A program made the translations under genes and the position numbers. The notes beneath the pieces are model-generated. The model worked only from the letters and a program-made list of their open reading frames with translations, did not search any database and was not told where the DNA came from. A stretch of DNA of 32,823 nt, taken from NCBI GenBank assembly GCA_035533015.1, contig DATLUQ010000049.1, positions 1-32,823 of the forward strand, given 5' to 3'. How positions within the stretch are numbered: the stretch's first letter is position 1; every line of letters starts with the position of its first letter. This stretch comes from Gemmatimonadaceae bacterium. Lineage in GTDB: Bacteria > Gemmatimonadota > Gemmatimonadetes > Gemmatimonadales > Gemmatimonadaceae. This document shows, piece after piece, positions 22,223 through 26,101 of the stretch.

Positions 22223-23191
22223 GTGAAGAGACTGGGCCTCATCGGAACGTTCGTCTGGGACATCATTTATGGTCGCGATGTCCGGCAACTGCCCATCGAA
22301 GAATGGGGCGGCGTGACGTATACCCTGGCGGGGCTCGATGCTGCCCTGCCCGACGATTGGGAAATCGTCCCCCTCATCAAGGTCGGATCTGACCTCGCGC
22401 CGCGGGCGCGCGAGTACTGTCGCTCGCTCCGCCGTATGAGCCCTGCGGCTCCGCTCATCGAGGTGCCCTATCCCAACAACCGGGTGGAAATCCGCTACGT
22501 GAGCGAGTCGCGGCGCACGGAGCGGCTCACCGGCGGCGTGCCGCCATGGAGTTGGGCCGGGCTGCAACCGCTCCTCCACGGGCTCGACGCGCTCTACATC
22601 AACCTGCTCGCCGGGTGGGAGGTGGACCTCGAGACCGCCCAGCTCATCCGGCAGCACTTCCGGGGGCCGATCTACTGCGACCTCCATTCGCTGATGCTTG
22701 CCATCCAGCCCGACGGCCTGCGGACCCCACGACCGCTGCCCAACGTGCGCGACTGGTGTGCCTGTTTCGACCTGATCCAGGTGAACGAGGACGAAATGGC
22801 CCTGATGGCGCCCGACCCGCTGGCCCTGGCCGCCACGGCGCTCGACGCCGGCGCGCGGTGTTTGGTGGTTACGCTGGGGGCCCGGGGCGCCGTGTACTTC
22901 GCGGCGCCGGACTTCGAGCGGCTGAGCGATCTGCACCGTCCGCGGCCGCTGGGGGCGACGGCGGGGCCGCTGCGCTCGGCGCTCGTGCCGACGCCCGTGT
23001 CAAGTCCGGCCGGGGGCGACCCGACGGGTTGTGGAGACGTATGGGGCGCGACCTATTTCTCTCGGCTGCTCGCCGGTGATATGTTGCGGCACGCCATCCT
23101 CGCCGCGCATCGCGCGGCCGGCCGAAACCTGGAGCACCGCGGAGCCACCGGGCTCGCGCAACACCTTCGAGGGGAACTCAGCGCCACGTGA
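22223..23191 (+). CDS. PfkB-family (ribokinase-like) carbohydrate kinase
   Basis: A 322-residue protein starting at GTG 22223. It has the ribokinase-like fold with the C-terminal PfkB signature in the form GGDPTGCGDVWGATYF, keeping the catalytic Asp of GCGD; the usual form is DTxGAGD. The N-terminal half is divergent (LIGTFVWDIIYGRDV, EEWGGVTYTLAGL), so the substrate cannot be predicted. YINLLAGWEVD, CDLHSLML and DLIQVNEDE are the expected core strands. It is separated from the ROK gene by 51 nt, and its stop overlaps the STAS-HATPase start (GTGA). Tight coupling to a regulatory kinase-like gene rather than to other sugar genes is unusual. Confidence 0.85.
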   Translation: MKRLGLIGTFVWDIIYGRDVRQLPIEEWGGVTYTLAGLDAALPDDWEIVPLIKVGSDLAPRAREYCRSLRRMSPAAPLIEVPYPNNRVEIRYVSESRRTERLTGGVPPWSWAGLQPLLHGLDALYINLLAGWEVDLETAQLIRQHFRGPIYCDLHSLMLAIQPDGLRTPRPLPNVRDWCACFDLIQVNEDEMALMAPDPLALAATALDAGARCLVVTLGARGAVYFAAPDFERLSDLHRPRPLGATAGPLRSALVPTPVSSPAGGDPTGCGDVWGATYFSRLLAGDMLRHAILAAHRAAGRNLEHRGATGLAQHLRGELSAT

Positions 23192-24075
23192 CCACCGTCA
23201 TCAACGTCCCGCCGTCGCTCGACGATCAGTCGTTCGAGCAGGTGCTGGAACAGCTGGCGCCCGTGCCAATGGACGAGAAGGTCCTGGTCGACGCGCGCCA
23301 CTGCCGGTGGGCATCGCCCTACGGGCTCACGGCGCTGCTCGCGCTGGCCCAGACGCGAGCCGAGCGGCCGGCGTTCGCGGCGCCCGAGGGTGAGGAGACG
23401 GTGGGCTACTGGGCCCGCACCGACTTCTTCAAGTACGCCGACGAGCTGTACGAGCTGCACGGGACCGTCCCCAAGCGCGCGGGCGGCGACTCGCGCGTCC
23501 TGCTCGAGGTCACGCCGGTGGCGAAGAGCGAGGACGTGCACGAGGTGGTGGAGCGCATCCAGCAGAAGGCCCAGCAGATCATCAGCACCGAGCTCAATCT
23601 CGACGCCAAGGCCACGGTGGGCTTCGCGATGACGCTCTCCGAGATCTGCCAGAACATCGTCGAACACGCCGGCCGCGGCGGTTGGGTTGCCGTCCAGGCC
23701 TACACCTGGAAGAAGCGGCTCGGGCGGCGCGTGGTTCAGATCGCCGTGTGCGACGCCGGCATGGGGTTCCGCAACTCGCTGGAGGGCGCGCCGGGCCGGG
23801 TGCGCGACGACCGGTGGGACGACGGCGCGGCGCTGGAGGCGGCGGTGATCCGCGGCGTGAGCCGGTTCCGCGATCCGGGGCGCGGCCAGGGGCTGTCGGG
23901 CGTGCGGCGGTATTGCGGCCGATGGGAAGGCAAACTCTCAATTCGCAGTGGCACGGCGCGCATCGCGCTCGTGCCCAAGTGGGATGAGGACGTCCCGCTT
24001 GAGGAAGATCTCTCCCCCTTTCCCGGTGCTCAGGTGCAGGTCACGATCCCTGAGCGCACGGCAGGCAAAGAATGA
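23188..24075 (+). CDS. STAS-HATPase fusion, anti-sigma/RsbW-type regulatory ATPase
   Basis: A 295-residue soluble protein. The N-terminal part (about 1-110) resembles a STAS domain (KVLVDARHCRWASPYGLTAL). The residue just before the conserved Gly is Tyr45, not the usual phospho-Ser/Thr. The C-terminal half is a GHKL ATPase. Its N-box is Glu152...Asn156...His160 (SEICQNIVEHAG), its G1 box is Asp189-Ala-Gly-Met-Gly (CDAGMGF), and its G2 box is GRGQGLSG (from Gly231). This matches RsbW/SpoIIAB-like serine kinases. Such proteins usually phosphorylate or sequester a STAS or sigma partner. The next gene encodes a STAS-like protein, a plausible partner, but no sigma factor is nearby. Both ends overlap neighbours by 4 nt. 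Role inferred. Confidence 0.8.
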   Translation: MTTVINVPPSLDDQSFEQVLEQLAPVPMDEKVLVDARHCRWASPYGLTALLALAQTRAERPAFAAPEGEETVGYWARTDFFKYADELYELHGTVPKRAGGDSRVLLEVTPVAKSEDVHEVVERIQQKAQQIISTELNLDAKATVGFAMTLSEICQNIVEHAGRGGWVAVQAYTWKKRLGRRVVQIAVCDAGMGFRNSLEGAPGRVRDDRWDDGAALEAAVIRGVSRFRDPGRGQGLSGVRRYCGRWEGKLSIRSGTARIALVPKWDEDVPLEEDLSPFPGAQVQVTIPERTAGKE

Positions 24076-24626
24076 ACCACATCGACCTGGGCACCGTGCT
24101 GCGGCAGACGGTATCGGCCAATCTCTACTCGAACCTCGTGACCCGGCCCACGGGGGCCGCGGTGCGCAATCAGATCGAGTTGCTCATGCGCGAGGCCCAT
24201 GAGCGCACCCTCACCGTCCTCGATTTTTCCCACGTGTCGATGATGGACTTCTCGTGCGCCGACGAGGTGATCGCCAAGCTGTTGTTGCGCTACTGTGACG
24301 AGAATCCGCCGCACGAAGCGTACTTCCTGTTCCGCGGCATGACCGACGACCACTGGGAGGCCATCGAGACGGTGCTCGAGCGCCACGGCCTGGCGCTGGC
24401 CATCGAGCAGGAAGACGGAGTGCACGTGGTGGGGGTGCTCAGCGAGCGCGAGCGCCGGGCGTGGGAGGCGGTTCAGCGGCACGGGCGCGCCGCGGCCGCC
24501 GACCTGGCTGGCGAGATCGGCGAGGACGAGCCCGACATCCGCCGCACGCTCGACGCGTTGTGGCGCCGTCGCCTGGTCATGCGTCTGGATGAGGAATACG
24601 TGGTGCTCGGAGGAGAGCGTGGCTGA
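24072..24626 (+). CDS. STAS-like (DUF4325-type) protein with C-terminal winged helix
   Basis: A 184-residue protein from ATG 24072. Residues about 25-110 resemble the STAS-like DUF4325 fold: TLTVLDFSHVSMMDFSCADE, then VIAKLLLRYC. Ser61 sits at the position phosphorylated in classical STAS anti-sigma-factor antagonists. Residues about 125-180 (LSERERRAWEAVQRHGRAAA, ADLAGEIGEDEPDIRRTLDAL, then WRRRLVMRLDEEYVVL) look like a winged helix-turn-helix. It would thus link a partner-switch domain to a DNA-binding domain in one polypeptide. It overlaps the STAS-HATPase gene by 4 nt and the next small gene by 8 nt. Domain calls are from pattern recognition, the winged helix being the less certain one. 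Confidence 0.72.
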   Translation: MNHIDLGTVLRQTVSANLYSNLVTRPTGAAVRNQIELLMREAHERTLTVLDFSHVSMMDFSCADEVIAKLLLRYCDENPPHEAYFLFRGMTDDHWEAIETVLERHGLALAIEQEDGVHVVGVLSERERRAWEAVQRHGRAAAADLAGEIGEDEPDIRRTLDALWRRRLVMRLDEEYVVLGGERG

Positions 24627-24924
24627 ACGGCTCCACCGTCCGTTGCGGGTGGCGCAGTTGATCGCCACCAAGCCGGACGACCCGGCGCGCGGATCGGCGG
24701 TGTTCATGCACCCCGAAGACGCCCGCCAACGCCTGCTCACCGATGGCGAGCTGGCGTGGGTGTACGGTCCGCGGCGCCACGAACTCGCCACCGTGCACTA
24801 CGACGACGCACTGCCCCGCGGCGACGTGGTGCTGCGCGACGTCGTCGGCGCCTCGCCGTCCGAGATCGTGCGGGTGATCAAACCAGACCTGGATTCGCGC
24901 GGACGACCGCCCGCTTACGCATGA
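24619..24924 (+). CDS. Small hypothetical protein, possible double-psi beta-barrel
   Basis: A 101-residue protein starting at GTG 24619, chosen because GGAGGAG stands just upstream. The middle (AVFMHPEDARQRLLTDGELA, then WVYGPRRHELATVHYDDALPR, then GDVVLRDVVG) has the HPEDA...DGD/EL...RG pattern of molybdopterin-dinucleotide-binding and aspartate-decarboxylase-like double-psi barrels, but it stands alone without an oxidoreductase. The C-terminus reads VRVIKPDLDSRGRPPAYA. It lies in the operon after the STAS/winged-helix gene and 10 nt before the PLP enzyme gene. Neither a molybdenum enzyme nor an AAA ATPase is nearby, so the resemblance may be structural only. Confidence 0.6.
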   Translation: MAERLHRPLRVAQLIATKPDDPARGSAVFMHPEDARQRLLTDGELAWVYGPRRHELATVHYDDALPRGDVVLRDVVGASPSEIVRVIKPDLDSRGRPPAYA

Positions 24925-24934
24925 CAACCGGCCG

Positions 24935-26097
24935 ATGACCAGGAAACCACGGCGCCCGCTCGATCGCGCCACGCTGCCGCTCCACGGCGGCCTCGATGCC
25001 GGCGACCGCGACGTCGACGCCCCGGTGGTGCGCGCGCTGTACCAGTCGGTCAACTACATCCAGGAAATCGGCACCGCCGAGGGCATGCGGTATCCGCGGT
25101 ACGGCAACGCGCCCAACGCCGAAGCCGTGCAGCGCCGGATGGCCGCGCTCGAGGGCGCCGAAGCGTCAGTGCTGCTCGCCAGCGGCATGGGCGCCACCGC
25201 CTGCGCGCTCACCGCTCTGCTCCGCCCCGGCGATCACATCGTGGCCAGCGCGTGGATCTACGGCGGCACGCGCACCCTGCTCGAGCAGGAATTCACCTCC
25301 CTCGGCATCGAGGTGTCGCTCATCGAACCGAACGAGGTGCGCGTCTGGCGCCGCGCCGTGCGCAAGAACACGCGGGTCGTGTTCGTCGAGACGCCGGTCA
25401 ATCCCAGCTGCCGCGTGCTCGACCTCAAGCCGGTGAGCTACGTGTGCAAGGACTCGGGCATTGCGCTCGTGGTCGACGCCACGTTCGCCAGCCCGGTGAA
25501 CTTTCGCCCGCTCGAGCATGGCGCCGACGTGTCCATCCACTCGGCCACCAAGTACCTGAATGGCCACCACGACGTGATGGGCGGCGTCGTCTCGGGCACC
25601 GCGCCCTATATTGAAGAGGTGCGGCAGAAGATGATGATCTGGGGCCAGGCGCCCGACCCGTTCGCCGCGTGGCTGCTCGAGCGCGGACTCAAAACGCTCG
25701 ACGTGCGCGTGCAGCGGCAGAACGCCAACGGTATGCGCGTGGCCGAATGGGCCGAGAGCTGCAAAGAGATCAGGCGCGTCCACTACCCGGGCTTGCCCTC
25801 TCACCCGGATCATGCCGTGGCCAAGCGCACGCTCGACGGGTTCGGCGGCATGCTGGCGTTGGAACTCGGTGGCGGCGCGCGCGCCGTGGACCGCATGCTC
25901 CGCCGGTTGCGGCTGTTCCAGCACGCGCCGAGCCTGGGCGGAGTCGACTCCCTGGTCTCGGAGCCGCGCCACACCTCGCACGCCGCCGTTCCGGCCGACG
26001 AGCGCGCCCGAGCGGGAATTGCCGATGGATTCGTGCGGCTGAGCATCGGCATCGAGAGTGCCGACGACCTCATCGCGGACCTCGACCAGGCGTTGCG

Positions 26098-26101
<4 letters not shown>
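24935..26101 (+). CDS. Cys/Met-metabolism PLP enzyme (gamma-synthase/lyase family)
   Basis: A 388-residue fold-type I pyridoxal-phosphate enzyme. Visible hallmarks: RYPRYGNAPNAEAVQRRMAALEG (substrate-entrance region, Tyr and Arg of the neighbouring-subunit PLP contact), LLASGMGATA, VFVETPVNPSCRVLDL, VVDATFASPVNFRPL, and the PLP Lys206 in HSATKYLNGH with the GG of MGGVVSG. The C-terminal part has VHYPGLPSHPDH, GGVDSLVSEPRHTSHA and VRLSIGIES. The family includes cystathionine gamma-synthase/lyase, methionine gamma-lyase and O-acetylhomoserine sulfhydrylase; which reaction applies cannot be settled from sequence. ATG 24935 follows the small gene by 10 nt, and the stop overlaps the FtsE TTG. Confidence 0.92.

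What the first reader, a model, noticed from the sequence alone, without database searches (positions are those of the whole stretch)
23188..24924. Embedded partner-switching module: STAS-HATPase, STAS-like/winged-helix and a small barrel-like protein
The first protein combines a STAS-like half (with Tyr where the phospho-Ser usually is) and an RsbW-type ATPase with intact N, G1 and G2 boxes. The second combines a STAS-like domain (Ser61 in the phospho-site position) with a probable DNA-binding winged helix. This would let a switch kinase act directly on a transcription factor, with no sigma factor. The trio is translationally coupled to a PfkB kinase upstream and to a PLP enzyme and ftsEX downstream.
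Basis: partly seen in the sequence, partly recalled or inferred. Interest (0 to 1): 0.7.

Follow-up and report, generated by a model that had tools for sequence, protein, structure and literature searches.

The report
Protein kinase switch in core operon
Nearly all sampled members of one class of soil and freshwater bacteria (Gemmatimonadota) carry, inside a housekeeping operon, a two-protein switch related to one recently shown in other bacteria to turn on antiviral genes after DNA damage; the phosphorylation half is intact, but the DNA-reading half looks worn out, so it probably controls something else.

Summary
The trio is real. P1 (23188-24075) is STAS + SpoIIAB/RsbW-like kinase; P2 (24072-24626) is STAS-like + winged helix; P3 (24619-24924) is a lone molybdopterin-dinucleotide-binding-type barrel. 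P1 occurs in 282 and P2 in 280 of 298 sampled genomes of the phylum, mostly single-copy and in the same order in all 80 loci examined, in a lepA...ftsEX neighbourhood. P3 is confined to one family (102 of 298). The pair is homologous to CapK/CapS, a kinase/repressor pair published in 2026 (PMC13373217). The Ser that CapK phosphorylates in CapS (S54) aligns with Ser61, Ser in 81 of 81 relatives; on plasmids it is Ser in 9 of 9 P2 homologues beside a P1 and A/T/C/C in 4 of 4 without one. The DNA-binding half is not: CapS's three DNA-contact features occur together in 0 of 81, the winged helix is cut short in 9 of 81, and CapK's ssDNA-sensing Trp is absent. No immune operon adjoins. Verdict: new variant of a known kind, a housekeeping CapK/CapS-like switch with unknown input and probably a non-DNA output. 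Nothing was tested biochemically.

The parts
22223..23191 (+). PfkB-family sugar kinase, upstream partner in the operon; stop overlaps P1 start (GTGA)
   Evidence: Pfam PfkB E 6.3e-9; upstream of P1 in 75 of 80 loci, 76 of the 80 being long enough to show it
23188..24075 (+). P1, 295 aa: STAS domain plus GHKL (SpoIIAB/RsbW/CapK-like) kinase
   Evidence: in 282 of 298 genomes
23188..23466 (+). P1 residues 1-93: STAS domain, no Ser at either phospho-site register (S43-P44-Y45)
   Evidence: structure match TM1442 Z 9.4, 4hyl Z 8.8; register
23488..24063 (+). P1 residues 101-292: GHKL kinase domain
   Evidence: SpoIIAB 1l0o Z 13.2, rmsd 3.0, 135 aligned; RsbW 6m36 Z 11.8
23641..23670 (+). P1 N box, E152-A161; N156 aligns with CapK catalytic N218
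   Evidence: E152, N156, H160 in 81 of 81; alignment
24072..24626 (+). P2, 184 aa: STAS-like (DUF4325-type) domain plus winged helix; CapS homologue
   Evidence: in 280 of 298 genomes
24135..24167 (+). P2 residues 22-32, LVTRPTGAAVR loop, likely kinase-facing
   Evidence: L22, T24, R25, T27, G28, R32 in 81 of 81; role inferred
24246..24266 (+). P2 residues 59-65, DFSCADE; Ser61 codon 24252-24254, predicted phospho-acceptor
   Evidence: D59, S61, C62, A63, D64, E65 in 81 of 81; aligns with CapS S54
24444..24605 (+). P2 residues 125-178: winged-helix fold, poorly conserved, DNA contacts of CapS missing
24619..24924 (+). P3, 101 aa, stand-alone molybdopterin-dinucleotide-binding-type domain; one family only
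   Evidence: Pfam PF01568 E 1.5e-7; 102 of 298 genomes, all in family f1
24935..26101 (+). Cys/Met-metabolism PLP enzyme, downstream neighbour
   Evidence: Pfam E 6.8e-123; 63 of 80 loci

Best explanation
P1 and P2 are a kinase-substrate switch of the CapK/CapS kind, fixed in the core genome of the class. Unstimulated, P2 is unphosphorylated and its STAS face pairs with itself or with a partner. On an unknown signal P1, a GHKL serine kinase, phosphorylates P2 at Ser61; this breaks the STAS contact and releases P2 or its partner. No sigma factor is in the circuit. Because the DNA contacts of CapS are gone, the output is more likely a protein contact (as in VapS, which holds a protein partner) than MarR-type repression. 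Shown here: genes, folds by prediction, homology, conservation, covariation of Ser61 with the kinase gene. Inferred: phosphorylation, contact breaking, non-DNA output. Unknown: signal, partner, phosphatase.
For: Gemmatimonadota-only profiles find CapK- and CapS-type proteins on plasmids (P1 profile E 4.5e-33 to 1.9e-8; P2 profile E 1.1e-14 to 7e-4). Profile-profile: P2 vs foreign P2 E 2.4e-18 over residues 21-172, P1 vs foreign P1 E 2.6e-31 over nearly the whole length. A mixed profile matches solved CapS structures 9z71 (E 1.4e-15) and 9z72 (1.5e-11) with Ser61 on the phospho-site. The protein at L250/L251/L261 is WP_001567865.1, the CapS of PMC13373217. P1 N156 = CapK N218, 81 of 81. Ser61-equivalent: Ser in 9 of 9 P2 homologues beside a P1, A/T/C/C in 4 of 4 whose plasmid has no P1; 1 in 715 if independent, which they are not. 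The two invariant P2 stretches, 22-32 and 59-65, lie where STAS proteins meet their kinase (inference from SpoIIAA/RsbV). DNA contacts absent.
Against: No biochemistry. No complex could be modelled. P1 lacks CapK's N-terminal HTH and its ssDNA-stacking Trp68. In strict alignment with canonical STAS proteins Ser61 sits one residue late. S61-x-x-D64 could also be a structural helix cap. The winged-helix fold is predicted with high confidence (block pLDDT mostly 93-97), which favours some DNA role. No protein partner is identified.
Confidence: 0.55

Rival explanations
1. Same kinase-Ser61 switch, but P2 is still a DNA-binding repressor, controlling its own or another operon.
For: Confident winged-helix fold; matches to MarR/TrmB/ArsR-type folds; homologous CapS is a proven repressor (PMC13373217); MarR_2 hits to 2.3e-5 in relatives.
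Against: N145, K151 and G169-G170 together in 0 of 81 relatives, against N in 9, K/R in 10 and GG in 11 of 12 foreign homologues; K151 replaced by Asp/Glu in 51 of 81; winged helix much less conserved than the STAS part (mean entropy 2.50 vs 1.66 bits); truncated in 9 of 81; mostly neutral to acidic domain.
Confidence: 0.28
2. Canonical anti-sigma switch: P1 holds a sigma factor and P2 is its antagonist.
For: P1's best structural matches are SpoIIAB, RsbW and UsfX.
Against: No sigma gene among the shared neighbours recognised in the 80 loci (only the listed window genes were sought); P1 aligns full length with CapK-type proteins; the genome has a separate canonical RsbV-RsbW-RsbU set; 10 of the 13 genomes without a SpoIIE-type phosphatase keep P1 and P2.
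Confidence: 0.06
3. P1 is an ATP-dependent clamp or scaffold without kinase activity; Ser61 is a structural helix cap.
For: S61-x-x-D64 fits a capping box (recalled); the canonical phospho-position is F60.
Against: Ser lost in 4 of 4 kinase-less homologues; all catalytic boxes invariant; homologous Ser54 is phosphorylated (PMC13373217).
Confidence: 0.08

Closest known systems
CapK/CapS (PMC13373217, EMBO J 2026; abstract, sections 7, 10, 12, 13, 14 and passages read)
   Same: Adjacent genes; STAS-GHKL kinase plus STAS-winged-helix substrate; catalytic Asn; phospho-Ser aligned with Ser61; no sigma factor
   Different: No N-terminal HTH on P1, no Trp68, no CapS DNA contacts, no immune operon; near-universal in a class rather than sporadic. 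The word Gemmatimon* does not occur in the paper's main text
VapKSC (same paper)
   Same: STAS-GHKL kinase without extra HTH; STAS substrate that acts on a protein
   Different: No VapC-type gene recognised beside it; P2 has a winged-helix fold rather than a short tail
SpoIIAB/SpoIIAA, RsbW/RsbV
   Same: Kinase fold and STAS fold
   Different: STAS domain on the kinase itself, winged helix on the substrate, phospho-Ser one residue later, no sigma factor seen
DUF4325 STAS-like domains (PF14213)
   Same: 2 of 21 P2 relatives match weakly (best 0.0089); the Janibacter homologue is above cut-off (2.1e-6)
   Different: The window P2 itself has no DUF4325 match at E 1 or better

Membership tests
CapK/CapS | Kinase with STAS and GHKL domains and catalytic Asn (CapK N218) | tested here: met
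   N156 in 81 of 81
CapK/CapS | Substrate with STAS and winged helix and the conserved phospho-Ser (CapS S54) | tested here: met
   S61 in 81 of 81
CapK/CapS | capK immediately followed by capS | tested here: met
   same order and strand in 80 of 80 loci; in the 5 f6 loci a cyclophilin-like gene lies between
CapK/CapS | N-terminal HTH on CapK | tested here: not met
   P1 begins at the STAS domain; the paper found the HTH dispensable
CapK/CapS | ssDNA-stacking Trp68 | tested here: not met
   aligned to a gap; at the nearest residue, S10, aromatic or His in 3 of 81
CapK/CapS | DNA contacts N145, K151, G169-G170 of CapS | tested here: not met
   all three in 0 of 81
CapK/CapS | Adjacent immune operon | tested here: not met
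   lepA-ROK-PfkB-P1-P2-PLP-ftsEX neighbourhood. In the paper 348 of 443 had one, so not strictly defining
CapK/CapS | Phosphorylation activated by ssDNA | not testable with these tools
   needs purified proteins
VapKSC | VapC-like nuclease gene beside the pair | tested here: inconclusive
   none among the neighbours recognised in the window; no PIN profile was run over all loci
RsbW/RsbV-type sigma switch | Phospho-Ser directly after the Asp of the STAS motif | tested here: not met
   F60 in P2, P44 in P1
RsbW/RsbV-type sigma switch | PP2C (SpoIIE-type) phosphatase | tested here: inconclusive
   one full and one partial elsewhere in the genome; 10 genomes with P1 and P2 have none
DUF4325 | Match over the Pfam cut-off | tested here: not met
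   weak in 2 of 21 relatives

The most novel reading that the evidence does not exclude
A phospho-switch known so far mainly as a sporadic controller of immune operons has a core form, nearly universal in a bacterial class, whose substrate has lost DNA reading and instead gates a housekeeping protein encoded in or near the lepA-PfkB-ftsEX operon. P1 keeps a conserved aromatic and basic loop (W174 aromatic in 78 of 81, K/R at 176, 177 and 180 in 69, 75 and 80 of 81) where CapK's K237/K239 lie, so nucleic-acid sensing through a rebuilt groove is not excluded.
Probability: 0.4. Interest if true: 0.75.

Novelty: new variant of a known kind. Interest (0 to 1): 0.6.

Why it matters
CapK/CapS was described as a controller of immune and possible stress operons. 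A near-universal, mostly single-copy form in a whole class, embedded among translation, sugar-kinase and cell-division genes, would show the same kinase-STAS unit serving core physiology, and gives a defined serine (Ser61) to mutate. It also bears on whether such switches moved from housekeeping into defence or the reverse.

Tried and rejected
Canonical register for the phospho-site: from RsbV S56, SpoIIAA chains and hhalign (all low probability) I first judged Ser61 misplaced by one; the solved CapS S58A chain and CapS S54 showed that this family uses the later residue, so I withdrew that.

SOS substitute: I asked whether the class lacks LexA, which would make the switch an alternative damage response; LexA is present in 60 of 61 genomes, so rejected.

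PP2C dependence: not universal. Viral contigs: A3 found no relative. Phage records: 2 partial P1 hits only. Plasmids: window P2 gave no hit. PADLOC called P1 'DrmA' at 4.1e-12 over the ATPase part only: taken as a shared GHKL domain. Rows of the fold searches outside the named folds were not pursued; the CapS structures were not among the rows shown (library ends April 2026).

Literature: searches listed nothing on this pair in Gemmatimonadota; the CapK/CapS paper came only. Its supplementary files could not be read.

Selection: the 80 loci were picked by me from listed matches with usable contigs, about one per genus, 46 via P1 and 34 via P2, so presence of the gene used for picking is by construction; three (L122, L123, L144) are close relatives. 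Foreign regions opened: 6 of the 11 records; one each of the records listed; 8 of the 47 records (plus the two IncHI2 ones already opened).
Full report
What is there. Three short overlapping genes follow a PfkB-type kinase gene in the window: P1 (23188-24075, 295 aa), P2 (24072-24626, 184 aa) and P3 (24619-24924, 101 aa). The PLP enzyme starts 10 bases after P3. The window is contig C49 of a 3.03 Mb, 66-contig genome, 95% complete. The 80 best relatives of P1 among named genomes carry mostly Gemmatimonadota or Gemmatimonadaceae titles (a few are titled only 'bacterium', and one as Kuenenia), so the host is most likely a Gemmatimonadota bacterium.

Folds. Pfam sees P1 as a GHKL ATPase (E about 2e-5) with a faint STAS match and P2 as a faint HTH; relatives sharpen both (STAS_2 1.2e-5 in a P1 relative, MarR_2 2.3e-5 in a P2 relative). 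AlphaFold2 with alignments of relatives gave confident models (P2 pLDDT 90.0, pTM 0.86; P1 87.2, 0.88). P1 residues 101-292 match SpoIIAB first (1l0o Z 13.2, rmsd 3.0, 135 aligned), RsbW next (6m36 Z 11.8); residues 1-93 match single STAS antagonists (Z about 9). P2 residues 121-183 match winged helices (Z about 10); its STAS-like part matches RsbS (Z 9.5, 101 aligned). P3 is a stand-alone Molydop_binding-type domain.

Conservation. In a sample of 298 genomes of the phylum P1 is found in 282, P2 in 280 and P3 in 102. Six of the 298 lie outside the class; within it the counts are 281 and 280 of 292. Most matched genomes have one copy. P3 is in 102 of the 103 genomes of the window's family and in none of the other 195. 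I fetched 80 loci, about one per genus: P2 follows P1 in 80 of 80, PfkB precedes in 75, ROK in 72, LepA in 64, PLP follows in 63, FtsE in 46 (some loci are too short to show every neighbour). In the five loci of family f6 a cyclophilin-like gene lies between P1 and P2 (Pfam on one of them E 2e-45). In 80 further loci P2 was found in 78, the other two ending at the contig edge; 63 of 78 junctions overlap by 4 or 1 bases with my choice of starts.

Residues. Over the window and 80 loci (81 sequences) the P1 residues S151, E152, Q155, N156, E159, H160, D189, G191, G193 and G231-G235 are the same in 81 of 81, and P2 has L22, T24, R25, T27, G28, R32, D51, D59, S61, C62, A63, D64, E65 in 81 of 81. 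Tyr45 of P1 is not invariant; Pro44 is. The winged-helix part of P2 varies far more (mean entropy 2.50 bits against 1.66 for residues 3-121) and is cut short in 9 of 81, eight of them in family f2.

The wider family. Plasmid records contain distant P1 homologues, and beside most of them stand STAS-like/winged-helix proteins. Distinct places with both genes: Sphingobium, Nostoc, Cytobacillus, Janibacter, IncHI2 plasmids of Enterobacterales, two of Vibrio gigantis, Acinetobacter johnsonii and Citrobacter koseri, nine in all. Phaeobacter and Bradyrhizobium plasmids have a P1 homologue and no P2 homologue; two Pseudomonas and two Acinetobacter plasmids have a P2 homologue and no P1 homologue anywhere on the record (chromosomes not checked). 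Profiles trained on Gemmatimonadota alone recover the foreign proteins (all P1 homologues except the Vibrio L252 one, and 6 of the 9 paired places for P2 at E 0.01), and profile-profile comparison gives E 2.6e-31 for P1 and 2.4e-18 for P2. Seven of the nine pairs adjoin immune-type genes: multiubiquitin/ThiF/DUF6527 sets or ThiF in five, a CBASS cyclase with a SAVED-HNH effector in one, a type I methyltransferase in one. Two E. coli chromosomes carry the pair before a multiubiquitin-ThiF-DUF6527 set, one of them between eno and a gamma-mobile-trio island.

The known system. A 2026 paper (PMC13373217; abstract, passages and sections 7, 10, 12, 13, 14 read) names these CapK and CapS. CapS WP_001567865.1 is the very protein on the IncHI2 plasmids. 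It reports that CapK phosphorylates CapS Ser54 when activated by ssDNA, that this splits the CapS dimer and lifts repression, and that a related VapS holds a toxin-like partner instead of DNA. CapS reads D52-S53-S54; S54 aligns with window S61, and CapK N218 with P1 N156. The HMMER alignment to the V. cholerae S58A structure puts the mutated residue on the same column. Canonical STAS antagonists use the residue before it. The Ser is present in 9 of 9 foreign P2 homologues beside a P1 and is A, T, C, C in the 4 without one, which ties it to the kinase, though relatedness makes the naive figure (1 in 715) optimistic.

What differs here. P1 lacks CapK's HTH and Trp68. CapS DNA contacts N145, K151 and G169-G170 occur together in 0 of 81; the foreign set has N in 9, K/R in 10 and GG in 11 of 12. 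K151 is Asp or Glu in 51 of 81. No immune operon adjoins. A basic, aromatic loop (W174 to R180) is conserved where CapK has K237/K239, so another nucleic-acid contact is possible but untested. A SpoIIE-type phosphatase is missing in 13 of 298 genomes, of which 10 keep P1 and P2. LexA is present in 60 of 61 genomes, so the switch does not replace the SOS response.

Mechanism. The best-supported core is kinase P1 acting on P2 Ser61 (either output: about 0.83 by my estimate). The output is the open part: I put a protein contact at 0.55 and DNA binding at 0.28. Signal, partner and dephosphorylation are unknown. Nothing was measured.

Judgement. It is a new variant of a known kind.

Noticed in passing
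L247 2941-5345 (own genome C13): A canonical partner-switch set: STAS protein with IDSSGLG, RsbW-type kinase and a PP2C-containing protein, separate from the finding.
   Followed up: partly
L134-L138 (family f6): A cyclophilin-type peptidyl-prolyl isomerase gene sits between P1 and P2 in all five f6 loci.
   Followed up: partly
L254, L255, L257, L258: CapS-like proteins on plasmids without a CapK homologue have lost the phospho-Ser (A, T, C, C) while keeping the DNA-binding helix.
   Followed up: partly
L164, L165, L166: Shorter CapK-like proteins without the N-terminal HTH and without an aligned Trp68 beside CapS-like proteins, in Nostoc, Cytobacillus and Janibacter.
   Followed up: no
window 24619-24924: P3, a lone molybdopterin-dinucleotide-binding-type domain, in 102 of 103 genomes of one family and in none of 195 others; purpose unknown.
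   Followed up: partly
G235: A 99% complete genome of the window's family in which P1, P2 and P3 were not found.
   Followed up: no
window 23515-23973: PADLOC's DrmA model matches the P1 ATPase part at 4.1e-12.
   Followed up: no
L261 4730-9352: An E. coli O111:H8 chromosome carries the CapK/CapS-multiubiquitin-ThiF-DUF6527 set next to eno and a gamma-mobile-trio island.
   Followed up: no
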